64,000 bases of DNA from Aphrocallistes beatrix. Its lineage: Eukaryota > Porifera > Hexactinellida > Sceptrulophora > Aphrocallistidae. Below the pieces are notes generated by a model. It saw only the letters and a list, made by a program, of their open reading frames with translations, was not told the origin of the DNA and did not search any database. The stretch covers positions 1,717,001-1,781,000 of the forward strand of contig OY725506.1 of NCBI GenBank assembly GCA_963281255.1, read 5' to 3'. Below, one piece after another: positions 13,601 through 64,000 of this stretch; the first letter of the stretch is position 1; every line of letters starts with the position of its first letter. The position numbers and the translations under genes were made by a program.

Positions 13601-16600
13601 TGTCATTGATTACTAACTTGAATGTTGGTACATCTGACGCCAATACATTCTTAGGCATTGAGAGTAACGCCTTTGCTGACATGAACAACCAAGCGAATAC
13701 TGCTCAGAGCAAGCAAGCTTCACAAGTATTACAAGACAGCACCGCAGCTAGCTTGATTGCATTTGATTTGGATTTAAATTCAGATATGCTCACTCTCTCC
13801 TTCGATGATGTGGTTAATCCTTCTTCTCTCGACCTCACAAGTTTTACTATACAAGATGCATTGCTTGCTACTGAAGCACATACTTTCCAAGTCAACCCAA
13901 CAGTTTCTTCTTCTCCCGGCTTAGTTATCACTGTTCAAATCTCCAACACAGACGTCCTGAGACTGAAGAGCAACACCAATCTTGCCACATCTTCACTCGA
14001 TACCTTTTTATCGTTCAGAGTAGGTGGGATAAGCGATGTTGCTGCCAGGAATGTCATCCCAATACCTGATGGAAGTGCTATTCCTGTCACTTCCTATATA
14101 AATGATACCATCAATCCTGAACTAGATGCATTTTATTTTGATTTGAATAGTGGTGAACTCTTTTTGCGATTCAATGAACCAATTTCAACCTCCTATTTTG
14201 ATCTGTCCGCTTTTACTCTTCAGAATTCTGCCTTGAATCCAACCCAATCGATTTCATTAACTGTCACTCCTCCAATAGTGAACTCTGACCTGACCTTATT
14301 TACTGTTACTCTATCTGCTACAGATCTCTACAATATTAAAACCAATGACTCCCTTGCTATTGATAATTCTACAGCATTTTTAAGATGGAATGCGTTTGGA
14401 GTACGCGATACATCTGGGAACCCAATTCTCAGCGTCTCTACTGGTATTCAAGTGCTCAATTTAATTCCTGATACTACTAAACCAAATTTAGTATCCTTTC
14501 CTAGTTTTGATCTTAACCAAGGCTTGGTTACGCTCCAATTTGACGAACCAGTGTCGCTTCCTCCTAGCTTCTCCGCTTTCACTTTGCAGAATGATTTTCT
14601 GACTGACAGATCTGACTCGCAACTATCTTACACCCTGACCGACGGCATCTGTACAGCACCAATTGGTTGTGTAACTTCAAGTATAATTACATTCGGGTTG
14701 ACTGCTCAGGATATAAATGAAATCAAACTTCGTACTGGTGTATGCAGTCTTTCAACTAATTGTGTGCCAGCTTTTACTGACTATTTCTTATCTGATGTTG
14801 CGAAAATTCCCAATAATATAACCGAGGTACCAAACGCACGAATGCTAATAACAGAGAGACTCCTGGGTAATTTTGTGCAGGACACGACAGACCCTAGACT
14901 ACTGAGTTATCAATTAGATCTTAATCAGGACACACTCATCTTAACGTTCAATGAGCCTGTCGATGTCACATCACTGAACGCTTCTGCTCTACACCTTCAA
15001 ACCTCTTCAAATGGTGGCCAGCAAGTTGTCATAGCTAGTGCTGCTTCTTCTGACATGCGCTCTCTGATTGTAACTCTAGATATAAGTGGAGATTCGGACT
15101 CGATTAAGTCCTCTCCTATTGCCACCAACCCTAACACTACTTATTTAGTAGTTGACCGTACTGCTATCACAGATGTAGCTGCTAATAGTCCTAATTTCAT
15201 CACCATCATTCCCGCATCAAACGCTCTTCCTGCTGAAATGGTCATACTTGATGGTACAGCTCCCGCCTTATCTTCTTTCATTCTCGACTTGAATTCCAAT
15301 CAACTCATTGTGTCTTTCACTGAATTTATTGATAGTTCATCTCTAATAATATCTAATTTTATATTGTCAAACTCTTCGACTTTGACTCTCTTTAACATCT
15401 CCATTGCTGGTGGATTAACAGACAACGCACTTTCTCCTCTACCACCTGCTACCCGTGTCGTGTATGTAAATCTATCAGAACAGCCCTTGACTGCTATTAA
15501 AACGAATATGAACTTTGGAACAAGTAATGCCAACACTTTTCTTACTGTACAAGCGAATTCTTTCCAAGATATTAGTAGCAATCTGAATTTAGTAGGTAGT
15601 ACTATTCCGAGTTCTCAAGTTATACCTGATACAACCCCTGCTAGCTTATCATCATACACAATAAACCTTGAAGAGGAAGTTCTCATTCTCACATTTGATG
15701 ATGTTATTGATCCTTCAAGCATTCAACCACAGTTCTTAAACATTCAAGATGCGCCATCAGCTACCATACAGATTCCTCTCACTAGTGGTGTCCTGATGTT
15801 TTACACTGGTCTCTCTGTTTCTCTTCAGTTCGCATATACTGACATAGTTTTACTAAAGAGTAATTTAGGGATTGCTACTTCAAAAAACAACACTTATCTA
15901 ACAATGCGTGCAGATGCTTTCAATGATGTTTCTGGGTTTGATGTTCAGGCCATTACTGATGGCAATGGGCTGCAGGTATTAATCTACATTAAAGACAGCA
16001 CACCTCCGTTATTGGAGAGTTTTGGATTAGATATGAATCTTGGTAAAATTTCACTTAGTTTTAACGAACCAGTGAAAGAGAATACTCTCAATCTATCCCT
16101 ATTTACAATACAAGCACATAGACAGAGCCCCATTCAGTTTGTAGAACTCTCTGGTCAATTGGGAGTCAGTTCTAATGCCAATCTCACCTCAGTAACTGTA
16201 GATCTTTTGACTAGCGACCTAAACTCAATAAAAGCGAATGAATTGTTGGCAACTTCGTCCTCAAATAGTTTTGTTACCCACAGAGCTCTAGGTATCTCGG
16301 ACACTTCAGACAATCCAATCGATTCCATCCGTGACGGAATCCCTGCTGTAGACTATATCTTCGATAATACTGACCCTACTCTTCTGAACTTCACTCTTGA
16401 TCTTGACTTAGGCGCACTAGTCCTGACATTTGATGAAACAGTTCGAGGGATATCATTAGCAGAAACTAACATCGTTTTGAGGAACTCGTCAGGTGTCGGA
16501 TCATCACTTGTGTTAGCTGACGTGTTTAATTCCCCTACAGAAATTGCTGCCGTTATCACTGCACCGCTTGATCCAAATAATGTAAACGAGTTGAAGTTGA

Positions 16601-19600
16601 TTAGAGACTTGGGAACCTCTACAAACAATACATATATTGTTGCTAACAGAGGATTTATTGATGATATGCGGGACAGGCCTGCAAACGCAGTTTCGATCCC
16701 TATTCGTGCTCAAGAAATAATAGCAGACTCAGTACCTCCAAACCTGCTACTATATAACATAAATCTAACCGACAGTTCTATCACTTTCTCATTTAACGAA
16801 CCTGTGTTAGTGTCATCACTAAATCTCAGCCGTTTCTCCCTTCACAGCAATAGAGACTCTACTTTACTGGGGACTATCTCTCAGCCTTTTTCTGTTTCTA
16901 AAGTTATATCCACGGACTCAGATGTTGTGAAGGTTACCTTTACTGAGACGAATCTATTTGCTATTAGAGACAACCCTAACATCGCTAGCTTTAGGAATAA
17001 CACATTTTTGACCTTTGATATTTCTGCATTCACTGACATATATGGCAATGGAAATGAGGCCCGTGCTAATAACGACGCATTACAAGTTAACATTTTAACT
17101 GATGATTTCTCTGGACCGCTTTTACGTACTTGGACTATTGACATTGACAACGGACAAATTATTTTGAAATTTAATGAAAGCATTGCCCCGCAGACTTTGA
17201 GAGCTCAATTTATTACGATAATTAATAATCCGAATGGGGATATCTCCTATCAATTGAGCGGCGGTTCGACTTCTCAAATTACAGAATCTTCTGAGTTAAC
17301 TTTTAATCTTAGTTTAGTTGATTTGAATATCTTAAAGGCTAACACTTTACTTGCTACAGATAGAGGGAACTCTTACATCATTTTGGATCCAAATGCATTA
17401 ATTGATATTAACAACAATCCTATTACAGCTATCTCAAATGACTCTGCTATTCAGGCTGAAAATCATTTTCCAGATTCTACTAATCCAAATTTGATAGGAT
17501 TTGAACTCCAGATGGAAGGTGGAACAGTTCCATTATTGCTTGTTCTGACCTTTTCAGAAGCTGTAATCAGCTCTACAATCAATCCAGTAAACCAGTTGAC
17601 TCTTTACGACACAATTGATAACTCTGGTGTCAATTATACTATTCAATTAGGCCAGATAATATCTCCCAATTCAGACATCATAGTCATTAGCATATCCAGC
17701 CAAGACCTTTTGAACATTCAAGGCCTTTATCCACTCGGATCAAATGTGAATACCACCTTCTTATCAGCTCCTGATAGTTTGGCAAATGATAGTGTGAATC
17801 TAGGATCTGCAGCGATTGATGTTTCTTCCCTCCTTCAAGCCAGTAGAATTACTGCTGATTTGATCCCTCCCACCCTTAACTCATTTACTCTCGATTTAAA
17901 TTCGAACACATTGGTTTTAACATATAATGAACTGATCAATTCATCTACATTCGATATATCTACTGTGACTATTCAGAACCGTCCTACAAATCCTACATTT
18001 TCTTTGGCACTTTCTAGTGGTAGCATTTCTACAAATCTCCCAACACAAGTGACAATCTCTTTATCAGCAGATGTCATTGCGCTCCTAACTAATAATAGTG
18101 AGTTTGCTGTTTCCAATCTTACAACCTTTTTAAGAATAAATCCCGCCTCTATTCAAGACATAGCAACCAATAAGGCATTCGGTTCGGTTAACAATACTGG
18201 CTTTCCTGGATTACTTATAGAGGACAGGACTTTCAGCAGGCTTATTAATTTTACACTTGATCTCGATGCTAACAATTTGATCTTAACCTTTAATGAAGTT
18301 ATGAATTCCTCTACGTTTAATCCATATTTTAACATCCAAATCCAGAGTGGGCCTTCAGATCTCGACCGTTCCGTTGTATTTGAACATCTCGATTCCGCAC
18401 CGACCTCTTCTCCTGATGGTTTTGTTATCTCGTTTTATCTCAACCCTTCTGACGTACTGAATTTAAAAAGTTCTACTAATATTGCTCAGTCTCGGGAGAC
18501 CACCTTTCTCTCTATCTCTCCGGACACAATCCAGGACAACAATGGCAATCCTGTGCAACCTATCCATGATAATGATGCTCTTGCGGTCCAAGTGTTTATC
18601 CAGGATAGCTCCCCCCCGGTCATCACTTCAGCTGAGTTGGACATGGATTCAGGAGTTCTCTTCATCTCTTTTGACGATCCTGTAGATCGGACTAATTTGA
18701 TTTCTTCTATCATTCTTCTCTCAAACGATAGCACTGTTACGAACTCGTACAATCTAACTGTATCTACTCTTCTCTCTCCCACTCAAACTCAGAATGATTT
18801 TTATGTCCGTATTCAAATTGGGGAGGCTGACTTAGATCAACTGAAGATTCGTAGCATATGTACTAGCAACGTATCCTGTTTCTACCAGATATCCCGAGGC
18901 TTTGTTTCTGATTTTAATCAACTTTTAAGCGAGCCTTCTGGACCCCCTCGAGCCTTTAATATTTATCTTTTTGACGTCACATGCCCCAATATTGTTGAAT
19001 TCTCACTATTAGATCTCGATAATGGTTTTATTTCGCTCAGTTTCAATGAACCGATTATTCCTAATTCCCTTTCTCCTTCGCGATTATACCTCCAATCGCC
19101 ACTTAGAGAATTCCTACTGTTCAACTTCGTTCAGCTGGCGATTGATAGTCGTAATTACTCCGCTTCAAGAAATCTCAATTTTATGATCAATAGAGCCACA
19201 CTATCCCTTATTTATTTGGATGCCCTTCTCTGTACTGACGAGTCCAATTGTTTCATTATTGCTATCAAAGGTGCTATTAAGGATAGTTCAAATAACGAGA
19301 ATTGTCAGACACCTGTGGATATATACAAGGAACTTGGCTTGATGCTTAAATTTCTCTCGCCTGATCTTACCCGCCCCAATTTAACTAGCGTTTGTTTTGA
19401 TCTGAACAATTGCACTCTCAATCTTACATTTGATGAACCTGTTTCCTCTTCCTCCATTGACCTGACACAATTGACCATTCACTCAGACACAACCGGATCT
19501 GGATCATTTTACACACTGACTGGAGGAGTAGTTTCTTCTGATAATTCGGATTCTATTTTTGTTTATTTGACCGAAACGGACAAGAATCGCATCAAATTGA

Positions 19601-22600
19601 TGCTTGATCTCGCAACTAACGGGTCAAATACATTCTTTGCTATCACGAGCCATTTTGCTACTGATCTAGCTTTTAATATCACGACTAATTCAGACGCCAA
19701 TGCTGTGTATCCGATTGAAACTCCAAATCTTTTGAATGGTTCCAAGCTTATCCCTGATACGACACCGCCTATTCTTGAATCTTTCACTCCAGATTTCAAT
19801 TTAGATGAAATACGTTTAACTTTTTCAGAACCGATCAGTAATGGAACTTTTAATTTGTTTGGATTTACTTTTTCGCTCTGCTCGCGTCCAAACATTCCTG
19901 ATTACAACTTAACAGACAGCATAGTTTATACTCGTGATCAGCTGATATTTGTGATTGAACTTTCTGATTCAGATGTAACTGAACTGAAGTTGTTAGGATT
20001 TGCTCAATACCAAGCTTGCCTCTCCTCCATTAGAGGGTCAGTGTATGATATATCTGGAAATCCTTCAGACCCTATTAGCAACTTGATTGCTACTGCTCTA
20101 AGTTTAGACACAACAAGGCCTTCTCTATCTAGCTTCAGTCTAGACATGCAATCTGGTTTGCTCAACCTTACATTCGATGATACAATGAACGTATCGACTT
20201 TCAGACCTACCTCGTTTATTATTCAAGATAATTCATACTCACAACCTGAGAATCAATACCAACTTACTGACTCTACTTTCCTTGTTAGTTCAATGGACGC
20301 TTACACTATTCAAGTGAATCTCTCTGACCAAGATATTCTCGGAATTCGCCTAATTTCTGGTTTAGCTGAGTCTGTTTCGAATTCCTATCTCACTATGCAA
20401 GCGTCTGCTCTAGATGATTTAGAGGGTATTGATGTTTTAGCTATCACTAATGGCAAGGCTCTTCGAGTTAATTCATTTACTCCTGATAATGATCCTCCGA
20501 ATCTGGTTCAATTTGACTTCTCACTTGATGTTGGAAGAGTGATTCTCTCCTTTTCAGATACTGTAAACGTTTCCACTTTATTGCTATCCTTCATAACTAT
20601 ACAGGATTCTCAGACCGCTACGCGTTCTCTTACATTGGCTGGTGGAACATTTAGTTTAACACAAGATGGAAAGACAGTTACAATCTCTCTTTTAGAATCT
20701 GATCATAACAAGCTTTTATTTGACCCCATTTTAGCCTCTAATAGAAATAATACTTATATAACGATACAATCTAACGCCATCTTCGATCTAGCTGAAAATC
20801 CATTCTCTCCACCTATTTCAGATGGAAATGCTGTACAGGTTACGATATTCAAAAATGATTCTCTTCCAATTGAAGTAATTAGCTTTTCTCTTGACATTAA
20901 CTCTGGTATATTAATACTCACATTCTCTGAAACAATAAATAATTCAACCTTCAATTCAGACTCGCTCTCCATTCAAGGAAGTGCAAATAGTAGTGGCTTG
21001 GAGTATTTCAATCTAACGAATAATAGCACTTTTATACCTCTTGATCTGACCTCCATTAGGGTTGATATAGGAACGAGTGATATTGAAAGCATTAAGTCAC
21101 TACGGTCTGTAGCTAAAACCTCATCTGGCACTTTCATTTCTGTTGATTCTTCTTTAATTGAAGATACTAGTGGTAATCCTACGAAATCAATTCTGCGTAG
21201 CAGCGGCCTTCCAGTTAGTGGCTTCATATCTGATTCAGTGAACCCAATTCTAAATTCTTACAAATTAGACCTTAATATTGGTCAGTTAGTACTAACATTT
21301 TCAGAAACTATTGATCCTCGAACACTAAATATTAATGAACTCAAGATTCAAAACTTAGCTGCTTCTAGTCAGAACGAACCTGTAGGTGGTTCCTTTTTAG
21401 AAAATACAACAATCGAATTGAGTATATCACTTTCTACCAGCTTTTTGGATGTATTGAGACTAGATACTAATTTGGCAACTTCCAAATCCAACACGTTTCT
21501 TATTTTTACTGAAGGGACCGTCAAAGACACTTCAGGTAATGATATCCCGCAGATTATCAATGGCAATGGAAGAATAGTCGATATATTCATTTCGGACTCT
21601 CAGGTCCCCGAACTATTATCCTATACTTTAGATGTTGACTCAGGTGTTCTTGTTCTCTCTTTTTCAGAAGCAATAAACACTGCAACCCTGAATCCATCTA
21701 GAATAAACTTGCACGATACTTTTAGCTTAATGAGTATCAATCAAAATTATTCTCTTCAATCTTCATATAATCTTGCTCCTTCCCCAATCCTTGAACTGAA
21801 TCTCACAAAAACGGACCTTTTTAACCTCAAATTAATTGAAGGGCTTGCTACAGATATAGTAAACACGTATCTCAGCTTGGGTTTAGATGCCTTAAAAGAC
21901 TTTGCAAATAACGCTGCTGTAAATTCCACCTCAGGAATTCAACCATCTTCTTTTACTCCAGACATTACTCGCCCTCTTCTAGACTCATTTCTACTTGACC
22001 TTGGGAGGAGCCAGCTTAATCTCACCTTTGATGAACCAGTTCTTGCCTCTACTCTTAACGTTCCGTTCTTAACCCTTCAAGATTCAGCATCATCATTGAA
22101 TCCATATACACTAACCACTACCAGCAGACTATCATCAATCAGTAACGGCGTTGTGCAAGCTATCGATTTGAGTAACGGTGATCTAAATGCAATCAAAGGA
22201 CGTGGTATTGGCACTACAGAAACGAATACCATGCTTTCTTTTGCAAAGAATATGGTAGAAGACATGGTTGGTAATGGTATTCTTGCATTATCTAGCGCAA
22301 ATCCATTAATGGCATCCCAGGTTATACCAGATGTGGTTGGTCCTTTCATTACGAGGTTTGAACTTGATCTAAATGATGGAAGGATACTAGTAACATTCAG
22401 TGAATCTGTGAATTTAACTTCATTTGATCTTTCTGAAGTCTCAATTTTGAGTAATAGTGCAGCCAACCCATTGGAACGTGTCGACTTTAATTTCCAAGTT
22501 CTTGTCGTTGAAGACTCTATCCTATCTTTAATTGCTACTATAACAAACAATGATCTTAACAATTTGAAGATAAGAGCATTAGCCAGCTCTATTTCTGATA

Positions 22601-55600: not shown

Positions 55601-58600
55601 ATAAAGTTGTAGATGTTTCAAAGATTAATTTTACTCTTTTCACCCTTCAGAATGCATTAATTGCTTCATCAAGTGTACAATTAACTGGAGGAAATATATC
55701 GGATGCAAATTCTTTCAATATTTCTTTCTTATTATCTCTTTCAGATTTGAACAATATCAAGATATTGAATAGTTTGGCGATCGATAGGAGCACAAGTTTT
55801 ATTGTTTTACAAGCTAACGCAGTTACTGACATCAGAGATCTTTTTAATGTTCTTATTCAACCTATCCAGGCATCAAGTTACGCAGGTGATACCACTCCTC
55901 CTGTCCTTGTCGACTTCACCTACGACTTGAACCAGGGTTTGATCATATTAACGTTTAGTGAAACCATTATAATCACTGATATTACATTGGTCTCGATTCA
56001 GAATCAGTTCAATGGATCCTTCTCAGTCTTTCCCAGTGCTATGTTGGTGCTGTCTGAGTTTGATTCAATCCTCACAATTAACTTTACAAATACTGAACTT
56101 AACAGGATTAAAGTTATGGTAGGAACAACACCACAGCAAAATCTTTCTATTCTAAACGGTAGTTTTGAGGATTCTTCAAATCTCGGATTGGCACAGTTCC
56201 CCCCTCGATTAGTTCTTTCCTCTAACTTTATCCCTGACTCAACTCCCCCTAGACTCATTGGATTCCGTGTCGATACTGTTGCGAGTCTATTGAACTTAAC
56301 TTTCAGTGAAATTATTGACAATGCTACTCTTATGATAAATTCCACTCGTCTCGTTTCATTTATCAATGCTTCTGACTACACTCTGAGGAGTAGCATGATT
56401 AACTCTATAGACATTGAAAATGCTATCGTCCTGCTCACGCTATCTGCTGAAGACACAGCTGCTATATCTTCGCTGGGTGCTGATGCAACTGTGTCTAATA
56501 TTAGTGTTTCGGATCATGCCGGGAATCAAATAGTACCAATAAACGTGCTAGATCTCCGTTCTGACAATGAAGGTATCGGCCCAGTTATTGTCTCTTACTC
56601 GTTAGACATGGACAATGGACTCGTTAGACTGACATTTACTGAGGTTGTTGATCGTAACAGTATCAATCCTACAGCACTCTCCTTTCATAATGGTCAAAGT
56701 ATTGATAGTGTCTCCTACTCGCTCACTAGTCAGTTTATACCTCCTCTTTCCAACAGCTCCGTTATTTCTATTTTATTATCTCAACTTGATCTTAATAATA
56801 TTAAGTCCCTACCCAACCTGGCTAGAACTAAAGAAACCACTTTTATAACTTATACTAACCAGTTCGCTACTGATATAGATAATAATCCTACAGATAACAT
56901 TCCCTTCAATTTGGCTATCAATGTAGAAACTTTTATTTTGGACTCTACTAATCCAGTGCTAACTAATTTTTCTTTAAATCTCACGTCAGAAACAATTACA
57001 CTGACATTTTCTGAAACAATTGATATAAATACTGTTGATTTCAGTAGATTTTTTATTCAAGACCAAGCATCCGGAAACAACATTGTGGTTTCTCTGTTTG
57101 GAAATCAAGTTATATTATCTCAGTCTAATCCTATTTTCTCTTTTCAGTTTGACCAGTCAGATTTAGACAACATATTCCTCCAAGAAATTTGTACTAGAAC
57201 AGATAACTGTTTTCTTAGACTCTTAGAAGAAGCGGTTCAGGATAGCTTTTCAAATTCGATTTTAGAAATTATTCTGTCCATATCTCCTGATGGTTTTACA
57301 CCTGACCGAAAGCCACCTAAATTTGAAAACTTTGTTTTGCTTAACTTCACGAGTGAAACGCTGGTCTTAAGTTTTGATGAGGCAGTTAACGTAAATACAC
57401 TAAATGCTAGTCAGCTTATCATTCAAAATTCTTTTAGTTTTATCCCTGGGTTTAATTCGTATCAGCTTCAAGGAGGGAGTGCTCTTAGTCAAAATGGATC
57501 GGAGCTTGTGATATCTCTCCTCATTTCAGACCTGAACGAACTCAAGAGGAGACGTGATACCCTGTGTGTTCTCATTACCAACTGCTATGTTAGATTTTCT
57601 AGTGCTCTTGTGTCTGACATGAATAACAACCCTGTAGTTCAACTTTCTGATGGCACCCTTGACAATCCAAATGACAGAGCCGATGCTATAATTATTGACT
57701 CCATCCCCCCTGTTCTTATTCAGTTTTCGCTTGACCTAAACATTGGCATTTTGAATTTGACCTTTAACGAGGTGGTTAAACCAGATAGTATTTTTACCCA
57801 ATTTATTACCCTTCAAAATAATCTTTCAAGCACTTCAAGATTAACTCTGTCTGCCCTCGATCCTTCTGATAGGATTACGCAGCAAATTGATTCAATCATC
57901 CGGTTCAGATTTGCATCCAGCGATTTTACAAGGATAAGAGCTAATCTTTTGCTCGGTAATGATGTCAATGATTCATATTTAACCCATACATCCGGTTTGA
58001 TAGTTGATGTATTTGACAACCCAGTTACTCCCCGCGTCGATGGCATTAGCGCCATACCAGCCTCGCTAGTTATATCCGATTCGATTGTACCAGAGATAGT
58101 AGAATTCTCTCAGCTCGATCTGGACTTAGGCACTCTTAGAATCTCTTTCTCCGAGCCTATCAATCCCAATCAAATATTCTTTGACAGAATTACAATTATT
58201 TCAACAAATAGTTCGCTTGCCACTGCAATACAGCTCACAAATGGTTCTGCTTTAGTATCATCAGACTTTTTCTCCATTACCATTATTCTCACGAACCTTG
58301 ATTTGATATCACTTAAACTCAATACAGCTGTCGCTAGTAGTGTGAGCAACACATTTTTGAACATATTACCGGGAGCCTTCTCGGATACCAGTGGTAACCT
58401 GATTATGGCGATCAATTCCTCTGATGCCCTCCGAGTCAGAATATTCACACCTGATATTACACGTCCCGAGCTTATCAGTTTTGATCTAGACCTAAACACT
58501 GGAACACTCATTCTAACTTTTAATGATGTTATACAACTTAGCACTGTTAATCCAACAGCTATCATTCTTCAGAGCAACAGAACTTTTGGCCCAGAATCTT

Positions 58601-61600
58601 CATCTTACACACTCACTGGTGGATTTGCTCAAACTCCTGATAATTCCACTCTTTTTATTTCGTTGATCGGCGTAGATATTACAAACCTAAAAGCTGATCT
58701 ATCTCTGGTATCTAGTGTCGATACAACATTTGTATCAATCACTTCTAATCTTGTTTTAGATCTTTTTAACCAGCCAGTTACTTCAATTATTGCTTCAAAT
58801 GCACTACAAGTAACAACTTATGTCAATGATTCCATACCACCCTTTTTAACCGGATTTACATTCAACCTAGATCAGGGCTCTATATCCCTTAGCTTCAGCG
58901 AGCCAGTGTATATTCCAACTTTCAGACCTGATCTCCTGACTATACAGAATATGGTTAATATATCTTCTGCTGAATTCTTTACGCTTATCGGTGGTGGATT
59001 CAGTAACCCTCTCATCTCTTCAACTTTGTTTACTTATTTTATGACTGAATCTGATCTAAATGCTATAAAAGCACTTGGTAATCTTGGCACGGATGTTGCT
59101 GATACGTATATTAGCTTTCCTTCTGCACTAATTATGGATACCTCCGGTAATCCTATTATTGCTATATCTGCAATGAATTCTACGAGGAGCAGTGTATTTA
59201 TTGGAGATAACACTCGCCCAGATTTACTCTCATTTAGTCTTGATATGGATAACGGAATTCTACTCTTGACATTCTCTGAAACTGTGGATAATTCTTCGAT
59301 TAGACTGAGCGAGTTTAGGTTCCAGGGATCACAGTCATTATCACCCACAGGTAGACAGGTGGCTTTAGATTCGAGCAGCCTTGTTACGTTTCAACCGGCT
59401 ATTGTGTTGAATGTTTCAATTAGCATTGAAGATCTAAACGAAATTAAATTTTTGTCTGATGTTGCTGCTGACAATATCACAACCTTCCTTACTATCCAGA
59501 GTTCATCTCTATTAGATTTAGCCCAGAATCCGGTTGATCCCTATCTGTCTAGTAATGCTCTTGGAGTATTTGAATACACTCCTGACTCCACCCCTCCCCT
59601 CATCCTCAATACTATCCTTGATATGAATGCTGGCACTATTCAGTTTACGTTTAATGAGCCTATAAATGCCTCCTCTTTCAATGGTTCAGGATTTGTTCTC
59701 CAAAATACGAATAACGCTATGTCTGTACTCATAACTGAGGGTCACATTATTCTAATCCAGCTCCAGCTTTCGAATCAGACACCAATTGTCACTAATATCG
59801 ATTCTACAGAATTAGTACTAGAATTTTTTTCTTTGGATTTAGATTTTCTTCAAGCTAATAACTTTTCATCCTCAATTGATAATTCTTTTTATGCTATTTT
59901 CGAAAATGCCTTATTTGACCAATCTGGTAATTCGATCTCACCCATCCCGGTTACTTCTGCTCAGCAAGTACAGGTGTTCGTTAACGATACCCAATCTCCG
60001 TCATACACTGGAGTTAGTCTTGATATGAACCTCGGAACTTTGACGCTTACTTTTGACGAGATCATTAATCCTTATTCAATTTTGTTAGACACTATCACTT
60101 TTAGCAATGCTCCAATCCTCATACCTCAAGCTACTCAATATACAATCAAAAATGGGAAAGTTGATCCAGTTTTCTCGAAAGAGGTCTTTATTGAACTGAA
60201 TAATCAAGATCTAAATGAGATAAAACGACTTACTGATCTCGCGACCTCGTCAACTAATTCCTATATCTTTATTCAGTCTCAAACTGCCTCTGATTCTAAT
60301 TTCAATCCAGTTAATGTCGCTACTAACAGTCGCCAAGCAATCAACTTCACAAGTGATACGACTCCTCCTGTCCTCGTAGGATTTATTATCGACACTCTTG
60401 CACTTAACACCGGGCGCATTCAGCTTAGATTTTCAGAAACAGTTAACGCATCTAGCTTAAATACCAGAAATATTTCTTTGTTAAGTCAACCTACATTACC
60501 CTCGATTCTTAACTATACACTTGATACTGCTAGCGTAATCGGCTCTGACTCTGATTTGATTATTCTTCATTTTGATATTACAGATATTGAATCCATCGTA
60601 GATATACCTCCTATTGGCCAAGGTCTTAATTCTACGTTTATCTCTGTCCCAAATGGTTTTGTTTCAGATATGTTTAATAATGATATACAAGCTAATATTT
60701 CATTACCAATATCTGTGACAATCGATGTTTTACGTTCTCAAGCTATTGAATTTAGTTTAGATCTTACAATAGGAAATATTATTGTCACATTTTCTGAATC
60801 AATCCAACTCACTACAACGAATATTTCACTTCTTACTCTATTCTCTGAATCAAGCCTTTTGGCTCAAAACTATTCTTTAACGAGCACCGATATTATGTTG
60901 ATCACAAGCAATATACTTGATATTAAGCTTAACCTTGTTGATCTCAATGCTATCAAGGCACTGGATAAATTGGCTATGAGCATGAATACAACACTAATTG
61001 TCTTGGATCGAGGATTTGTCGAAGATTCTAATGGAATTCTCAGTCAGGCTATCTCGATTAATGAAGCTTTGCAGATCACATCTTTCGTTCAGGACCATGT
61101 AAGGCCGATCCTTGTATCGTTTGATTTGGATATGAATTTGGGGTTAGTTACGCTATCATTCTCCGAAACTGTGAATTCGACTTCTCTTGAGCCAACCTTG
61201 ATAGCTTTACAAAATTTTGAGAATTCAGCAAATTTAGAATTTGCTTCATTCCAGTTCTCAGGAGCAGATCAAGTCACTCCCATCCCTAGCAACATTGTTA
61301 CATTCGGAATCGTAGAAAATGATTTAAGTGAAATTAAAAAGTTAAAGCTTGCTACTTCGACCGATGACACTTTCCTTACACTTAGCTCAATCTCAATTTT
61401 CGATATGAACGACAATCGAGTTTACCCAATTACATCAGTTAAAGGGAAACGAGTTTCCATTTTCATTCCTGACTCTTCTATTCCCATTTTAAATGCATTT
61501 GAATTTGATCTGAACCAAGGACTACTCACGCTCTCATTTAACGAGACTGTTAACGCATCATCGCTATCCGTTAATGACATCAGTCTCTTTTCACCTGATC

Positions 61601-64000
61601 GCTCCCTCTCCTTGGCTTCAAGCGTTGTTATTTCCGAAAATGCGCCTACCTTAATCATTCAGTTATCAAGTCAGGATCTCAATACACTAAAATCTCTTCC
61701 CATATGTTCCTCTAGAATTGCACAAAATTGTTTTCTGGATTTTCCATCTGGAATTGTTAAAGATATGGTCGAATTATATAATCTAGCCTTTCCTTCCTCC
61801 CAAAATGTATCTTTATTTATTAATGACTCTACAGGTCCAACATTGGTTGATTTTGAGGTATTTGATCTTCTCACTGGCTCCATCGTGCTAAGATTTTCTG
61901 AAATAATCAATATTTCTTCTTTTAGCATCCGATCCATAACTTTACAAACTTTAACTGACAGTCCATTAAGCAGTTTTACTCTAAGATCAGGAGATCTCTA
62001 TTTTGACAATAGCACGACTGTCACAATAACTATGTCGAGGAATGACCTGTTAGCAATCAAATTCGACGAACATATTTGTAGATATCGAGGTAATTGTTAT
62101 ATCTCCACCAACAGCTTCTTGGTTGAAGACTTTGCTGGGAATGAATTCTCCGTTCCATCGATTCCTCTAATTGTCTCCAATTTTATTTCTGATAACCTCC
62201 CTCCCCAATTGTTAAATTCGAGTCTCAATATGAACAATGGGACGCTCACACTAACCTTTAACGAACCAATAATACCACAAACATTCAATTTAAGTGGGAT
62301 TTCGATCCAAAATCATCCAGTTGTCCCAACTGAAGTCTATCAACTGACATCTGGGATTGTGACTAACCCCAATTCTCTCGAAATCAAGATTGTCCTATCC
62401 ACTTTGGACTTTAATTCAATCAAAAAAGCAAATCTTGCCTTTTCAACTTCAGATACTTACATCTCTCTCGCTTCAAACACGATCCGGGATAACTCGATAA
62501 GCAAAATTGGCAATGACTTGACAACGACAGCTATTATTGTTTCGCAATATGTTCCAGACTCTACAAAACCACAACTTCTTGACTTCAAATTGGATCTTTT
62601 TCAAGAAATTCTAACTCTCACCTTTAATGAACCTATTGTGTTACAATCTATCGAATTTGCTGGTTTTACGATTCGCTCGGACTGTCTGAAGAGCAGTTTA
62701 AATCTTACTTTGTCTGGCGGTTTCATCGATACGAGTTCTGATTCTATTATTGTTCCCATTCGTCTTCTCTCTTCAGATATATTTTTTCTAGTTGGGACTA
62801 TTGGCCTTGCTGATAATGAGAATAGCACTTATTTGGAGGTATTATCTAGTTCTTTCCGTGATTTCGCCAATAATAACGTCTCTAATATTCCATGTCTTAA
62901 AACTGGCGTTCATATATCAGATACTGACAGAATGATTCTACTTGCATTCGTCCTCAATGTCAATTCCAGCACTCTAACTCTAACATTTGACGATGCTGCG
63001 AATAGTGCAACATTTGATGCTAGGGGAGTTACATTGCAAAATTCGATTACTCGAGTCCCTGGCAAATTTCATACACTCTCAAGCACTACTATTACGAATT
63101 CACCTTCAGGTTCAGTTGTGGTGGTTGATATTTCTGCTGCTGATCTATTTGCCATTAATACTATAGCAGACCTTGGCCTGTCAACCAACGATACTTTCCT
63201 TACTCTTCAAGCCTCCACCATTGATGATCTTTTTGGTATCGATGTTTTAGCAATCACCGATGGAAATGCTCTTCCAGCCTCACAAGTAATTCTTGATATG
63301 CAAATACCCGTAGCTCGTAGCTTCATTCTCAACTTGGATGATGGTTTGCTACAAATACTGTTCTCTGAACCTGTTAACCCTGAGAGTCTCATATTTGATG
63401 GTCCTAATGGGATGATAGCCCTGCGAAATGCTCTAAATCCTCCAATTTCACAACAACTTATTGTTACACCAACCTCTAACATATCGCGTGAAGAAGATGG
63501 TCTGACAATTACTTTCAACCTTATTCGCAGTGATTTAGATAACATTAAAATGAATGCTGATATTGGTACATCACTCTCAAATACTTTCTTATTCCTCCCT
63601 GAAAGAAGCATACAAGACTTTTCTCAAAATGGTATTCAGGAGTCAGTTCTCACATCTACACGGATTATTGATGATGATGAAAATCCCTCATTAGTATCTT
63701 TTACTTTTGATCTTAGTAACGAAGCATTGTTATCATTAACATTTTCTGAAGCCATCAATTCGACCACTCTCAATGTTAGCGCGATCATTTTAATGGATGA
63801 CCCAGGACGCATAGCCACGTTTCTTATGCTTGCAGCAGCCAAGAGTACGATTGCTCTTCAAAATGTCCTGAACATCACTTTGATTGATTCTGATAAATTC
63901 TTCATTCAGAAAGCACCTAACTTTGCCACTTCTACAGAAAATTTATACATCAGTTTTCCTTCTGAAATGGTTTTAGATTTTTCTGGAAATTACATAAATC
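1..64000 (+). CDS. Giant tandem Ig-like-repeat protein, internal part (both ends outside window)
   Basis: One reading frame (codons starting at base 1, 4, 7...) stays open for all 64,000 bases, 21,333 codons, with no stop. I read every row in this frame. The protein consists of about 171 tandem domains, mean about 125 residues, each with D-x-[ST]-x-P-x-L, 'FxLDLNxG', 'LTFSEPV', 'YTLTGG', 'DLNxIK' and 'NTYLTI' segments in the same order. Predicted all-beta and extracellular; probably a fibre or adhesin, by inference from repeat architecture, sequons and paired cysteines. No enzyme motif, transmembrane segment or signal peptide is visible; these could lie outside the window. Resemblance to bacterial Big_5/SwmB-like 'FSE' repeats is by eye only. 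The gene family is not one I can name. No exon-intron boundary is visible; short in-frame introns are not formally excluded but the regular domain spacing argues against them. Confidence 0.95.
1228..1644 (+). other. Four-cysteine domain 1 (zone 1)
   Basis: A 139-residue domain with cysteines at codons 1417, 1435, 1510 and 1528. The two pairs are each C-x5-C, one in the central hairpin ('NCTLSIGC') and one after the IK helix-like turn ('LCTVRTNC'). The first strand has one extra residue ('FILFNIDSG') compared with the common 'FxLDLNxG'. The C-terminal linker is long and contains 'AERLLQDF'. Probably two disulphides; this is inference from spacing. Confidence 0.8.
1645..3552 (+). repeat. Zone 1 five-domain block 2
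   Basis: Domains start near 1645, 2011, 2386, 2752 and 3139. Position 1 ('APFASSENDTYIAI') is the zone 1 'GFA' type. Position 2 (2011) has the long central insert ('GTLTGVSGQAVTND'). Position 3 (2386) is the D type, 'LTFNDVVDNS', ending 'DSDALQV'; its linker 'ADETRASV' lacks the proline. Position 5 is the four-cysteine domain. Length 1908 bases. Confidence 0.85.
3139..3552 (+). other. Four-cysteine domain 2 (zone 1)
   Basis: Cysteine codons at 3325, 3343, 3418 and 3436 give 'GGICNTEIGC' and 'LCISSQTC'. First strand 'FVQVDLNQG' has the extra residue shared by this class, and the FSE strand is the variant 'LSLNEPVDV'. The C-terminal linker is long ('NLDIRNLGEF'). Confidence 0.8.
3553..5448 (+). 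repeat. Zone 1 five-domain block 3
   Basis: Domains start near 3553, 3925, 4300, 4669 and 5035. Position 1 has 'ISGFATNLNNTFLSL'. Position 2 (3925) has the long insert with 'NGTLMNSLGQELRNGD'. Position 3 (4300) has linker 'PDTTPAIL', 'LTFSDVVDSS' and the end segment 'VVAIIDGNGKPV'. Position 5 is the four-cysteine domain. Length 1896 bases. Confidence 0.87.
5035..5448 (+). other. Four-cysteine domain 3 (zone 1)
   Basis: Cysteine codons at 5221, 5239, 5314 and 5332 ('LCNASYSC' and 'LCSQMSNC'). First strand 'FYRFDLDEG' carries the extra residue. The C-terminal linker contains 'ADTRLLTDFVPD', close to the 'ERLL' linkers of sister domains. Confidence 0.8.
5449..7341 (+). repeat. Zone 1 five-domain block 4
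   Basis: Domains start near 5449, 5821, 6196, 6562 and 6931. Position 1 has 'SEFFTGINNTFLSL'. Position 2 (5821) has 'LTFSEAILA' and the long insert 'NNNPVEDGA'. Position 3 (6196) has linker 'PDTSPARL', 'LTFNDVINPS' and 'IAITDGNAIQA', very close to the zone 2 marker domain. Position 4 (6562) retains one cysteine (6820, 'LCVSSSTTF') at the site of a zone 2 pair. Length 1893 bases. Confidence 0.87.
6931..7341 (+). other. Four-cysteine domain 4 (zone 1)
   Basis: Cysteine codons at 7114, 7132, 7207 and 7225 ('GDCTPSFDC' and 'LCSQVSNC'). First strand 'FYKLDLNTG' with the extra residue. The linker contains 'SVERQLSSI', the local form of the arginine-containing long linker. Confidence 0.8.
7342..9210 (+). 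repeat. Zone 1 five-domain block 5
   Basis: Domains start near 7342, 7696, 8068, 8434 and 8800. Position 1 is the most divergent GFA-type copy ('AAQFQDNTHISF'). Position 2 (7696) has 'NGTLSDSQGAPLSEA'. Position 3 (8068) has linker 'MDSTPSQL', 'LIFDDVVNIS' and 'VGIADGQALRA'. Position 5 is the four-cysteine domain. Length 1869 bases, the shortest of the set. Confidence 0.86.
8800..9210 (+). other. Four-cysteine domain 5 (zone 1)
   Basis: Cysteine codons at 8986, 9001, 9076 and 9094. The first pair is C-x4-C ('TCSIIIC') rather than C-x5-C; the second is 'LCTSIINC'. First strand 'FTYVDLDTG' has the extra residue. The linker contains 'LNERVLGSVIPD'. Confidence 0.8.
9211..11091 (+). repeat. Zone 1 five-domain block 6
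   Basis: Domains start near 9211, 9574, 9949, 10315 and 10684. Position 1 has 'ASGFANNSSNTYLTI'. Position 2 (9574) has 'DGNLVDFNGSNLTTG'. Position 3 (9949) has linker 'QDTTPAEL', 'LIFSDAVEPSS' and 'VGILDGSGLQV'. Position 5 is the four-cysteine domain. Length 1881 bases. Confidence 0.87.
10684..11091 (+). other. Four-cysteine domain 6 (zone 1)
   Basis: Cysteine codons at 10870, 10888, 10963 and 10981 ('SICNPLQNC' and 'LCTATSNC'). First strand 'FSLFDLNTS' with the extra residue. The linker contains 'QTERELITLIPD'. Confidence 0.8.
11092..12981 (+). repeat. Zone 1 five-domain block 7
   Basis: Domains start near 11092, 11461, 11848, 12205 and 12568. Position 1 has 'SSGFANSANNTFLSI'. Position 2 (11461) has 'ISFSEAIRA' and 'VNVDGSPITDG'. 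Position 3 (11848) has linker 'PDVTPAEL' and 'FTFSDVVNP', but its end segment has drifted to 'LSLIPTSELQV'. Position 5 is the four-cysteine domain. Length 1890 bases. Confidence 0.87.
12568..12981 (+). other. Four-cysteine domain 7 (zone 1)
   Basis: Cysteine codons at 12754, 12772, 12847 and 12865 ('LICSSTIGC' and 'LCITEESC'). First strand 'FPLFDLNSG' with the extra residue. The long linker has 'ISNKLLSQLTPD', with lysine in place of the usual arginine. Confidence 0.8.
12982..14877 (+). repeat. Zone 1 five-domain block 8 (last regular five-domain block)
   Basis: Domains start near 12982, 13363, 13732, 14101 and 14467. Position 1 has 'ARSFATMESNTYVSI'. Position 2 (13363) has 'LTFTENIQAS' and the insert 'LNSTGGPATDG'. 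Position 3 (13732) has linker 'QDSTAASL', 'LSFDDVVNPSS' and 'PIPDGSAIPV'. Position 5 is the last four-cysteine domain in the window. Length 1896 bases. Confidence 0.87.
14467..14877 (+). other. Four-cysteine domain 8 (zone 1, last)
   Basis: Cysteine codons at 14650, 14668, 14743 and 14761 ('GICTAPIGC' and 'VCSLSTNC'). First strand 'FPSFDLNQG' with the extra residue; linker 'ITERLLGNFVQD'. The domain five places later, starting at 16360, has no cysteine, which marks the end of the five-domain cycle. Confidence 0.8.
17470..17853 (+). other. Long-hairpin domain, copy 1
   Basis: The first two strands are joined by a longer loop, 'LQMEGGTVPLLLVLTFSEA', in place of 'LDLNxGxLxLTFSE'. The same oddity returns exactly 23 domains later in five further copies, always as the eighth domain of a 12-domain half-block. 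Confidence 0.75.
18601..19359 (+). other. Cysteine tandem pair of domains, copy 1
   Basis: The first domain has 'ICTSNVSC' (codons 18859 and 18877); the second has 'LCTDESNC' (19231 and 19249) plus the extra-residue strand 'FSLLDLDNG'. Two further cysteines are unusual: one in the linker between the domains ('DVTCP', 18982) and one in the tail ('NENC', 19303). Together with the next two domains this makes the most cysteine-dense stretch of the window. Confidence 0.8.
20104..20481 (+). other. DVLAIT marker domain, copy 1
   Basis: Linker 'LDTTRPSL', strand 'LTFDDTMNVSTF' (FDD instead of FSE/FDE) and the C-terminal segment 'GIDVLAITNGKALRV'. The combination recurs every 23 domains (28672, 37264, 45796, 54409 and 62917) and, less closely, every five domains in zone 1. 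It is the best conserved stretch of the repeat. Confidence 0.85.
22690..23439 (+). other. Cysteine tandem pair of domains, copy 2
   Basis: First domain 'LCTSAQNC' (22939 and 22957); second domain 'LCNIQTACW' (23311 and 23329) with strand 'FNLFDLDSG'. The second domain is the 'C[WY]xRFSS' subtype ('CWSRVSSNF'). Confidence 0.82.
26083..26457 (+). other. Long-hairpin domain, copy 2
   Basis: Opening strands read 'FNAFLVTEPMTLQLVFNEA'. The 'xxEPMTLQLVF' layout matches later copies with 'EPLELILYF' and 'TPLMIILHF', and the usual DLNxG turn is missing. Confidence 0.65.
27184..27945 (+). other. Cysteine tandem pair of domains, copy 3
   Basis: First domain 'ICTSSSAGDC' (27442 and 27466), a C-x7-C variant. 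Second domain 'LCFNPGSCY' (27826 and 27844) with strand 'FMLFDYVSS' and the tail motif 'FPGFPAY', which recurs as 'FPGF' or 'PPGL' at 23-domain spacing. Confidence 0.8.
28672..29046 (+). other. DVLAIT marker domain, copy 2
   Basis: Linker 'PDTTRPML', 'LSFDDLMNVSTF', and 'IQAFAIDNVDQIDVLAIT' ending 'DGKALAG'. Its start lies 8568 bases after that of copy 1. Confidence 0.85.
31321..32082 (+). other. Cysteine tandem pair of domains, copy 4
   Basis: First domain 'LCTSDLDCY' (31573 and 31591); second domain 'LCNIGSTCW' (31954 and 31972), of the 'C[WY]xRF' subtype ('CWIRFNRMF'), with strand 'FIRFDKDSG'. The second domain closely matches copy 2 ('LCNIQTACW'), 23 domains earlier. Confidence 0.82.
34663..35037 (+). 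other. Long-hairpin domain, copy 3
   Basis: Opening strands 'FSLDQTGDIPTVFLSLTF' match the copy 1 layout ('GGTVPLLLVLTF') and replace the standard DLNxG turn. Confidence 0.75.
35788..36507 (+). other. Cysteine tandem pair of domains, copy 5
   Basis: First domain 'ICATSLGC' (36022 and 36040) is shorter than its sisters (115 residues). Second domain 'LCSMRANCY' (36388 and 36406), the 'NCY' subtype, with strand 'FDAIDIITG' and tail 'FDGFPGFIV'. Confidence 0.8.
37264..37632 (+). other. DVLAIT marker domain, copy 3
   Basis: Linker 'RDTTRPQL', 'LTFDDLVSNSTF', and 'LQAYAIDDINGLDVLAIT' ending 'DGNGIIA'. Its start lies 8592 bases after that of copy 2. Confidence 0.85.
39850..40602 (+). other. Cysteine tandem pair of domains, copy 6
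   Basis: First domain has a shortened pair, 'VCSSTCF' (40099 and 40111; C-x3-C), the only such case seen. Second domain 'ICTRQRDCYLRFSSDF' (40471 and 40489) with strand 'FVSLNLNNG'. Confidence 0.8.
43204..43578 (+). other. Long-hairpin domain, copy 4
   Basis: Opening strands 'FDLIMSEGTEPLELILYF' are nearly the same length and layout as copy 5 ('FDLIMNNFTTPLMIILHF'), 23 domains later. Confidence 0.8.
44311..45054 (+). other. Cysteine tandem pair of domains, copy 7
   Basis: First domain 'ICDSQANCF' (44563 and 44581); second domain 'LCDRRAHCYIT' (44935 and 44953), the 'NCYIT' subtype with His for Asn, strand 'FVEFDLFSG' and tail 'LEGPPGLVV'. Confidence 0.82.
45796..46170 (+). other. DVLAIT marker domain, copy 4
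   Basis: Linker 'QDVSRPEL', 'LTFNDVVRAVSF', and 'MQAFAVDDLLGVDVLAIT' ending 'NGKAIQV'. The DNA over 'DVLAITNGKA' differs from copy 1, about 25.7 kb upstream, only at third positions, although the flanking sequence has diverged. Confidence 0.85.
48409..49158 (+). other. Cysteine tandem pair of domains, copy 8
   Basis: First domain 'LCFMGSECY' (48658 and 48676); second domain 'LCTVEFDCWVRFSSFF' (49030 and 49048), the 'C[WY]xRFSS' subtype, with strand 'FDTFDLNNG'. The linker before the first domain ('PDTTNVTFIEF') lacks the proline. Confidence 0.82.
51778..52182 (+). other. Long-hairpin domain, copy 5
   Basis: Opening strands 'FDLIMNNFTTPLMIILHF'. At 135 residues it is the longest of the six copies, because it also has a longer loop after the FSE strand ('ASLFASTQFDPSK'). 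Confidence 0.8.
52918..53667 (+). other. Cysteine tandem pair of domains, copy 9
   Basis: First domain 'LCDNSTSGNCF' (53179 and 53203), C-x7-C as in copies 3 and 11. Second domain 'VCSIRGNCYIT' (53548 and 53566), the 'NCYIT' subtype, strand 'FTQINLDNG' and tail 'REPGILV'. Confidence 0.82.
54409..54783 (+). other. DVLAIT marker domain, copy 5
   Basis: 'LFFNDVVDSNSF' and 'ASTIDDPLGIDIIAIT' ending 'DGNAIQV'. The linker has decayed to 'PDSQSLSLTRF' and has lost both the Arg and the Pro of copies 1-4. Confidence 0.82.
56938..57696 (+). other. Cysteine tandem pair of domains, copy 10
   Basis: First domain 'ICTRTDNCF' (57190 and 57208); second domain 'LCVLITNCYVRFSSAL' (57565 and 57583), with strand 'FVLLNFTSE'. 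The RFSS motif is shared with copies 6 and 8. Confidence 0.82.
60352..60720 (+). other. Long-hairpin domain, copy 6
   Basis: Opening strands 'FIIDTLALNTGRIQLRF' are two residues longer than the standard 'FxLDLNxGxLxLTF'. It is the weakest of the six long-hairpin copies, but it lies at the expected 23-domain spacing. Confidence 0.6.
61468..62187 (+). other. Cysteine tandem pair of domains, copy 11
   Basis: First domain 'ICSSRIAQNCF' (61705 and 61729), C-x7-C; second domain 'ICRYRGNCYIS' (62077 and 62095), close to copy 9 ('VCSIRGNCYIT') 23 domains earlier, with strand 'FEVFDLLTG'. Confidence 0.82.
62188..64000 (+). repeat. Zone 2 half-block B11 (partial): first five domains
   Basis: Domains start near 62188, 62554, 62917, 63292 and 63670; the last is cut by the window end after 'DFSGNYIN'. 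The second (62554) has cysteines at 62683 and 62893, in register with 54037. The third is the marker domain. The order follows the earlier 11-domain halves, so the array should continue past the window with the same pattern. Confidence 0.83.
62917..63291 (+). other. DVLAIT marker domain, copy 6
   Basis: 'LTFDDAANSATF' and 'LQASTIDDLFGIDVLAIT' ending 'DGNALPA'. The linker 'SDTDRMILLAF' keeps the Arg but has lost the Pro. Its start lies 8508 bases after that of copy 5. Confidence 0.83.

What the first reader, a model, noticed from the sequence alone, without database searches (positions are those of the whole stretch)
14878..64000. 23-domain super-repeat (about 8.57 kb) made of 12- and 11-domain halves
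Cysteine tandem pairs begin at domains 50, 61, 73, 84, 96, 107, 119, 130, 142, 153 and 165 of the window, so steps alternate 11 and 12. The DVLAIT domain returns every 23 (54, 77, 100, 123, 146, 169), and the long-hairpin domain every 23 (47, 70, 93, 116, 139, 162). Block lengths between 19360 and 62188 are 8586, 8562, 8547, 8613 and 8520 bases. Such a large and regular period inside one protein is striking.
Basis: seen in the sequence. Interest (0 to 1): 0.9.

Follow-up and report, generated by a model that had tools for sequence, protein, structure and literature searches.

The report
Sponge giant protein with titin-like super-repeats
A glass-sponge-like genome encodes, in one unbroken 147-kb reading frame, a giant and probably secreted chain of 395 Ig-like domains whose 23-domain super-repeat is largely kept in register in other sponges, much as titin's super-repeats are kept in muscle, so it may be a ruler for an unknown extracellular filament.

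Summary
The window is one open frame; its 171 Ig-like domains show a lag-23 peak that none of 5000 permutations reached, and a weaker 11/12 signal. Corrections: the first 43 domains repeat every 5, and the 23-zone begins near 17.8 kb and runs past the window. The full frame has 49,068 codons, 395 domains and about 14 super-repeats. A 2023 paper gives one sentence to a 49,014-aa single-exon protein of the glass sponge Aphrocallistes vastus: this gene or a close ortholog, described there by size only.

New here: 29 of 69 long homologs (one from Corticium) and two Ephydatia gene models fall in the same 23-domain register. In the 29, Cys-pair domains sit at 247 of 265 predicted positions and 15 of 1268 others. 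Copy-number differences are mostly whole 5- or 23-domain units; P0008 (a 4-domain repeat) and P0020 (one domain) are exceptions. The 5-domain module is the core of each half-repeat. The chain ends in a conserved half-domain.

Best reading: a secreted, titin-like rod with stations about every 45 nm (inferred). Its location, perhaps choanocyte vane or collar mesh, is untested.

The parts
1..63999 (+). single open reading frame, part of one 49,068-codon frame (own genome C20:1708475-1855681)
106..16344 (+). 5-domain super-repeat zone (window domains 1-43)
   Evidence: lag-5 score 184 against 77-104 off-period; zone end
1216..14862 (+). four-Cys domains, one per 5-domain module: domains 4, 9, 14, 19, 24, 29, 34 and 39 (nt starts 1216, 3127, 5023, 6916, 8788, 10672, 12556, 14455)
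16345..17838 (+). transition domains 44-47, neither clearly 5- nor 23-periodic
17839..63999 (+). 23-domain super-repeat zone within the window (domains 48-171); continues to C20:1855678 outside the window
18586..19344 (+). Cys-pair tandem, domains 50-51
22675..23424 (+). Cys-pair tandem, domains 61-62
27169..27930 (+). Cys-pair tandem, domains 73-74
31309..32067 (+). Cys-pair tandem, domains 84-85
35770..36492 (+). Cys-pair tandem, domains 96-97
39835..40584 (+). Cys-pair tandem, domains 107-108
44296..45039 (+). Cys-pair tandem, domains 119-120
48394..49143 (+). Cys-pair tandem, domains 130-131
52906..53652 (+). Cys-pair tandem, domains 142-143
56923..57678 (+). Cys-pair tandem, domains 153-154
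61453..62172 (+). Cys-pair tandem, domains 165-166
20089..63276 (+). DVLAIT-type domains every 23: 54 (20089), 77 (28657), 100 (37249), 123 (45781), 146 (54394), 169 (62902)
17461..60705 (+). long-hairpin domains every 23: 47 (17461), 70 (26065), 93 (34657), 116 (43195), 139 (51775), 162 (60346)

Best explanation
It is the middle of a giant extracellular rod protein of a glass sponge: about 395 Ig-like domains (related to Pfam Big_5) in one 147-kb exon. SHOWN: domains follow one another at 111-141 residues throughout; about 13 five-domain modules are followed by about 14 copies of a 23-domain super-repeat; the super-repeat carries two core stations (Cys-pair tandem plus neighbours) 11 and 12 domains apart; this register is kept in sponge orthologs, and copy-number differences, where seen, are mostly in whole units. 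INFERRED: the protein is secreted, the domains are stiffened by inter-domain Ca2+, and the super-repeat acts as in titin. Each core is a fixed binding or cross-linking station, and the domains between are spacers. At titin's rise (43 nm per 11 domains) stations lie every 43-47 nm, the full period is about 90 nm and the molecule about 1.5 micrometres long. The protein would then be a ruler or backbone filament of a sponge extracellular mesh. Candidates are the choanocyte flagellar vane, the collar mesh or the gasket.
For: Register across species: 29 of 69 long homologs have one clear best domain diagonal (33-73 against 27-37 for the next; P0024 is nearly tied, 33.3 against 31.2); the other 40 are at 16 or below. 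In those 29, Cys-pair domains sit at 247 of 265 predicted positions and 15 of 1268 others. Found without reference to this gene, the best lag is 23, or 46 followed by 23, in 28 of the 69. In the own frame the tandem spacing alternates 11, 12 from domain 73 to 372 without a slip; at 314 one member has lost its pair and its partner 315 keeps it. A unit tree groups units 1-4, 6, 12, 13 and 14 across species with support 1.0. P0001 and P0008 reach the N-terminus with exactly 60 fewer domains, a multiple of 5. The order of the 5-domain module is kept in phases 3, 4, 5 and 6 of the 23-unit. Secretion: a candidate signal-peptide exon with matching intron phase 1.2 kb upstream, a paralog on C11 with an in-frame signal peptide, and 7 of 189 homologs with convincing ones by eye, out of 15 passing a hydrophobicity screen. 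Near-invariant Asp (D7, D106, D127, D230 of two domains) flank the junctions, as in Ca2+-stiffened bacterial Ig-like adhesins (recalled). Vane filaments are 3.5 nm thick, reach about 80 nm before branching, and lie in sheets about 45 nm apart; composition unknown (PMC9671500).
Against: P0008 breaks the register: its domains like own-genome 94-97, which include a Cys tandem, recur as a 4-domain unit (lag 4; extra tandems at 100/101 and 104/105). P0020 lacks one domain next to its first four-Cys domain. Units 7-11 are not one-to-one between species, so total length is not strictly fixed, as a strict ruler would need. Another own-genome domain is recognised only in part (frame residues 28355-28497). 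No structure could be predicted, so domain length, Ca2+ sites and rod shape are inferred. No localisation or expression data were seen. N-x-S/T sequons are not enriched (420, reversed motif 381, expected 408). The authors of PMC9671500 report (data not shown) that proteinase K did not remove the choanoflagellate vane. The signal-peptide exon is a prediction; a similar scan gave 1 hit in 11 other strand-scans.
Confidence: 0.55

Rival explanations
1. The super-repeat is only a relic of how the array grew: 23-domain blocks were duplicated long ago, nothing now selects for the period, and domain gains or losses are simply rare.
For: Units 7-11 show lineage-specific turnover of whole units, as unequal crossing-over of blocks would leave. 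P0008 carries a 4-domain block repeated several times, so other block sizes can spread. Many domain phases are hardly more alike between units than unrelated ones (self-similarity from -0.0 to 8.5 at phases 8, 9, 11, 12, 20 and 21).
Against: In the own frame, domains 23 apart share only about 31% amino-acid identity and there is no exact DNA repeat of 25 bases or more, so block crossing-over is not recent there. Yet the Cys register is kept at 247 of 265 positions in orthologs of about 28-36% identity, and similarity is concentrated at a few phases (3, 6, 14), as selection on stations would leave it.
Confidence: 0.3
2. The protein is specifically the filament of the choanocyte flagellar vane or collar mesh, the 11/12-domain steps setting the node spacing of the mesh.
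For: The register-matched hits that carry an organism name are sponges: Corticium P0007 and Ephydatia P0121 and P0168. Vane, collar mesh and gasket are extracellular structures of sponge choanocytes (PMC7755389, passages). Reported filament thickness and spacing are compatible (PMC9671500).
Against: No expression or localisation evidence. The proteinase K report in PMC9671500. No choanoflagellate ortholog was identified by name; the EukProt hits carry no organism in the tool output. Dysidea hits P0010, P0034 and P0083 did not match the register. Most homologs are unnamed ENA entries.
Confidence: 0.2
3. The large period is an artefact of assembly or of reading an open frame that is not a gene.
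For: Very long repetitive frames are a usual place for assembly errors.
Against: No N in the 180 kb read, no exact DNA repeat of 25 bases or more and only 2 short plus-strand self-matches. A published single 147-kb exon of 49,014 aa in A. vastus. Orthologs from other assemblies share the register, including one from EukProt whose name looks like a transcript assembly (P0004).
Confidence: 0.01

Closest known systems
Avas.s016.g412.i1 of Aphrocallistes vastus (PMC10282587; passages seen)
   Same: Single 147-kb exon, 49,014 aa, 5.34 MDa; here 49,053 aa from the first Met and 5.35 MDa. Very probably the same gene or a close ortholog.
   Different: The passages found give size and exon only; no domain type, super-repeat, orthologs, termini or function. 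The sequence itself was not available for comparison.
Titin A-band (PMC10665226; passages seen)
   Same: Tandem beta-sandwich domains in two zones of super-repeats, a short unit (7 domains) and a longer one (11) held to have evolved from the short one; conservation confined to certain positions; 43-nm spacing of partner stripes.
   Different: Ig/FnIII domains, intracellular, muscle. Here Big_5-like domains, probably secreted, units of 5 and 23 (11 + 12), Cys-pair tandems, and a half-domain C-terminus.
Big_5 (PF13205) and giant bacterial Ig-like adhesins
   Same: Domain family: 13 of 90 window domain pairs match Big_5, best E 3.9e-6; Lys/Arg-poor, pI 4.1; Asp flanking the junctions.
   Different: Most pairs do not match at E 0.01 and the best window piece is below Pfam's cut-off; animal gene; no multi-domain super-repeat of this kind recalled in bacterial adhesins.
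Corticium candelabrum LOC134193700 (P0007) and Ephydatia muelleri EMCRGX_G018689/G018688 (P0121, P0168)
   Same: Register-matched to own-genome domains 345-395, 274-293 and 295-307; period 23 seen by itself in the Corticium protein.
   Different: Annotated as separate uncharacterised or hypothetical proteins of 1.6-6.3 k aa.

Membership tests
Sponge giant protein reported in A. vastus (Avas.s016.g412) | single exon of about 147 kb coding for about 49,000 aa | tested here: met
   frame of 49,068 codons, 147,204 bases before the stop; report
Sponge giant protein reported in A. vastus (Avas.s016.g412) | same sequence | not testable with these tools
   the published sequence is not held; species of G000 inferred from size, collagen present, Wnt not found
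Pfam Big_5 (PF13205) | profile match above the curated cut-off | tested here: inconclusive
   21.6 bits against a cut-off of 23.6 for one of three window pieces; 13 of 90 pairs at E <= 0.01; 0 matches in the own genome at E <= 0.001
Titin/connectin family | Ig I-set and FnIII domains | tested here: not met
   no such Pfam match in the pieces scanned; no PDB relative by sequence beyond one chance-level hit
Titin/connectin family | kinase domain and sarcomeric location | not tested
   no kinase among the Pfam matches of the 3 window pieces scanned; rest of the frame not scanned with Pfam
Works like titin (super-repeat ruler), not membership | two zones of super-repeats, the longer built on the shorter | tested here: met
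   5-zone then 23-zone; four of the five module classes map in order to phases 3, 4, 5 and 6, the fifth only weakly to phase 10
Works like titin (super-repeat ruler), not membership | register kept between species | tested here: met
   29 of 69 homologs, Cys positions 247 of 265; exceptions: P0008 (4-domain repeat), P0020 (one domain), units 7-11 not one-to-one
Works like titin (super-repeat ruler), not membership | period matches that of a partner structure | not testable with these tools
   needs electron microscopy and localisation
Secreted extracellular protein | signal peptide | tested here: inconclusive
   candidate exon upstream; paralog on C11 has one in frame

The most novel reading that the evidence does not exclude
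The protein is the long-sought backbone of the sponge flagellar vane or collar mesh: a 1.5-micrometre, Ca2+-stiffened ruler whose Cys-tandem stations every 11 or 12 domains (about 45 nm) are the mesh nodes. Molecules join end to end by completing a split Ig-like domain: the conserved half-domain at the C-terminus (first half) docks on the second-half domain that some paralogs carry directly after their signal peptide.
Probability: 0.12. Interest if true: 0.95.

Novelty: new variant of a known kind. Interest (0 to 1): 0.75.

Why it matters
Titin is the textbook case of super-repeats that measure out a filament. This is an unrelated and longer protein, in an animal group without muscle, that arrived at a similar design: two zones, the long unit built on the short one, register largely kept between sponges. 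It gives a concrete candidate for the unknown component of sponge extracellular meshes that drive filter feeding, and it predicts lengths (about 45 and 90 nm) that can be looked for in tomograms. By size it is among the largest coding exons that I can recall in any animal.

Tried and rejected
Bacterial, phage or plasmid origin: the own genome is 100.5 Mb with fibrillar collagen; no match in the phage records (plasmid records not searched); a scan of prokaryote genome contigs with one 23-unit of the window found 6 pattern matches, none confirmed as a relative. Corticium as the source: a Corticium piece matches the own genome at 36-38% in its best hits, at most 48% in any of the listed rows. N-glycosylation as a signature: sequons not enriched. 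Further exons downstream: none within 14.3 kb (best 3.2 bits; reversed-strand control 11.4 bits; positive control on C11 strong). In one search the best flank hit was a minus-strand ORF at C20:1861187-1861510 (E 0.0013), opposite a retroelement ORF; taken as chance. Weak Pfam hits to MeMO_Hyd_G, DUF7638 and Glyco_hydro_5_C taken as chance or Ig-like cross-matches. A gapped domain-by-domain alignment of the 29 used too low a jump cost: it hops between units, mostly by multiples of 23. Summed by hand within each protein, I saw no sustained net shift inside the 23-zone other than multiples of 23, except P0008; P0024, P0045 and P0046 could not be placed cleanly. Structure prediction could not be run (queue full; 78 switched off), so no fold search was done. 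Exact species of G000 not settled: the 18S request did not complete. On rechecking, the confidence of the best explanation was lowered from 0.6 to 0.55, and that of the relic rival raised from 0.25 to 0.3, because of P0008.

Full report
WHAT WAS CHECKED. The window is one open frame of 21,333 codons. I placed 171 domains of about 124 residues (165 by an iterated matrix, 6 at midpoints of double gaps) and compared all pairs. For domains 45-171 the mean score is 136 at lag 23, 133 at 46 and 125 at 69, against a mean of 99 over lags 1-79, with small rises at 11 and 12. With domain order permuted 5000 times the largest score at any lag was 112.6, against 135.0 observed at lag 23 for domains 40-171. 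The Cys-pair, DVLAIT and long-hairpin positions and the five block lengths in the finding are exact. Domains 1-43 have instead a 5-domain period, and a four-Cys domain recurs every 5 from domain 4 to 39.

THE WHOLE GENE. The window lies in an assembly of 100.5 Mb in 28 contigs. The frame runs from C20:1708475 to 1855681 (stop included): 49,068 codons, no N in the 180 kb read. A profile made from the window's domains finds 395 domains, with starts 111-141 residues apart throughout. The first scores weakly, the last is cut, and one at frame residues 28355-28497 is recognised only in part. The 5-period holds to about domain 66 and the 23-period from about 71 to 395, with lags 23, 46, 69 and so on to 276 all raised. 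Cys-pair tandems run from domain 73 to 372 in strict alternation of 11 and 12; at 314 one member has lost its pair, and the next tandem expected, 383/384, is absent. There is no exact DNA repeat of 25 bases or more, so the array is old and not an assembly ambiguity.

WHICH ORGANISM. Wnt was not found (none of the 14 control genomes rang, so the negative is weak, though the same kind of search finds HSP90). Fibrillar-collagen COLFI was found. PMC5684314 (title and start of abstract in a search listing) treats glass sponges as animals without Wnt signalling. PMC10282587 (passages) reports in one sentence that the largest protein of the glass sponge Aphrocallistes vastus has 49,014 aa, 5.34 MDa, in a single 147-kb exon. 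Here the first Met gives 49,053 aa and 5.35 MDa. So the source is very likely A. vastus or a close glass sponge. A 403-aa ORF from the same genome is 100% identical to an unnamed ENA protein.

CONSERVATION OF THE REGISTER. A search with residues 1-5000 of the window's translation gave 69 homologs of 5.5-8 k aa. Analysed each by itself, 28 of 69 have 23 as the best lag, or 46 followed by 23, including Corticium candelabrum P0007 and the EukProt protein P0004; the rest have other periods or none. Aligned domain by domain to the 395, 29 of 69 have one clear best diagonal over 48-64 domains (P0024 only marginally): the same 28 and P0008. The other 40 do not. In the 29, Cys pairs occur at 247 of 265 predicted positions and 15 of 1268 others. 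A second search (8000 candidates scored, 120 of 133 hits listed) adds 22 of 120 with a clear diagonal. Among these are two consecutively numbered Ephydatia muelleri gene models that map to consecutive stretches (domains 295-307 and 274-293). Hits with an organism name were Corticium, Dysidea, Ephydatia and one partial Ectocarpus protein; of these only Corticium P0007 and Ephydatia P0121 and P0168 matched the register. A tree of 54 whole 23-domain units joins units 1-4, 6, 12, 13 and 14 across species with support 1.0. Unit 5 is represented by G000 alone, and units 7-11 are not one-to-one. So the two ends of the array are ancestral and the middle has turned over in whole units.

EXCEPTIONS AND STEP SIZE. 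P0001 and P0008 start with a cap domain like own-genome domain 1 and have 60 fewer domains before the 23-zone (P0001: 1-6, then 67 onward). P0047 fits the same, its cap not being scored as a domain. P0020 has one domain fewer still, next to its first four-Cys domain. P0008 repeats a block like own-genome domains 94-97, Cys tandem included, as a 4-domain unit, and so leaves the register. Steps of 5 and 23 are thus the rule in what I saw, not a law.

HOW THE UNIT IS BUILT. Setting phase 0 at domain 71, self-similarity is highest at phases 3 (86), 6 (84) and 14 (55). The two halves resemble each other at 3/14, 2/13, 6/17 and 5/16. Classes of the 5-domain module match phases 3/14, 4, 5 and 6/17 in order; the fifth class has only a weak best match at phase 10. 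The module is therefore the core of each half, and the rest are spacers. In titin, too, the longer C-zone unit is held to derive from the D-zone unit (PMC10665226, passages).

THE ENDS. About 1.2 kb upstream of the exon lies the only candidate locus found in 9 kb (two nested ATGs) for a signal-peptide exon, with donor GTGAGT and the same phase as the exon's likely acceptor (a similar scan gave 1 hit in 11 other strand-scans). A paralog on C11 has a signal peptide directly followed by the same kind of cap domain. Of 189 homologs, 15 passed a hydrophobicity screen and 7 look convincing by eye (P0005, P0034, P0075, P0115, P0122, P0133, P0147); many of the rest look like fragments without a true start. 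Three of the 7 (P0005, P0034 of Dysidea, P0115) continue with the second half of a domain. At the other end the frame stops halfway through domain 395. Six orthologs (P0002, P0006, P0007, P0013, P0099, P0166; 35-66% identical to one another, 36-38% to this one, over the last 800 residues) stop within a few residues of the same place. This half-domain has the highest mean ortholog identity among domains 59-395 (0.49), and no second half lies within 14.3 kb downstream. A conserved intron there is not fully excluded: mid-domain ends and starts are common among the homologs.

MECHANISM. Shown: architecture, register, mostly whole-unit change. Inferred: secretion, stiffness, ruler function. Using titin's 43 nm per 11 domains, stations are 43-47 nm apart, the period is about 90 nm and the molecule about 1.5 micrometres long. 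The choanoflagellate vane has 3.5-nm filaments that run about 80 nm before branching, in sheets about 45 nm apart, of unknown composition; sponge vanes and collar meshes are comparable extracellular structures (PMC9671500, passages and section 12; PMC7755389, passages). This fit is suggestive only, and the authors' proteinase K remark (data not shown) speaks against a plain protein.

NOVELTY. The giant protein itself is in print. I found no mention of its super-repeat, orthologs or function in the passages of PMC10282587 or in the listings; the library is open-access only and holds no bioRxiv preprints. PKZILLA-1, about 45,000 aa, is recalled as another giant. The design is a new, unrelated variant of titin's kind.

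Noticed in passing
window 106-16344: A 5-domain super-repeat with a recurring four-Cys domain precedes the 23-zone. About 13 copies in the whole gene, but apparently one in P0001 and P0008 from other assemblies, so it looks expanded in this lineage.
   Followed up: partly
P0008 (unnamed ENA protein, 5938 aa): An ortholog in which a 4-domain block with a Cys tandem is repeated several times, breaking the 23-domain register.
   Followed up: partly
own genome C20:1855500-1855681 (outside window; L019): The frame ends in the middle of an Ig-like domain, at the same place as six orthologs; the half-domain is strongly conserved.
   Followed up: partly
own genome C7:about 2749000-2869000 and C11:about 434000-482300 (L026-L029): Two paralogs with very large open frames (11,239 and 5,904 codons). 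The C11 gene has a signal peptide, and its C-terminal frame ends with the same letters as the unnamed ENA protein P0055, which carries a TIG domain.
   Followed up: partly
P0005, P0034, P0115: Paralogs start, right after a signal peptide, with the second half of a domain, complementary to the half-domain that ends the giant protein.
   Followed up: partly
units 7-11 of the 23-zone (own-genome domains 211-325): Own-genome units 7 and 11 pair with support 1.0 and units 8 and 9 group weakly (0.48), pointing to lineage-specific turnover of whole units in the middle of the array.
   Followed up: no
L009-L011, L019-L020: Flanks of the giant exon hold transposon remnants (gypsy-like pol, Tc1/mariner-like transposases, recognised by eye from the ORFs).
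   Followed up: no
L024:335-1543 (minus): Single-exon NHL-repeat protein of a large family (over 30 of the 54 listed hits lie on one ENA contig length, 1,110,297).
   Followed up: no
P0158: A partial Ectocarpus fasciculatus protein with the same domain type, without the register; possibly contamination or a wider eukaryotic spread.
   Followed up: no
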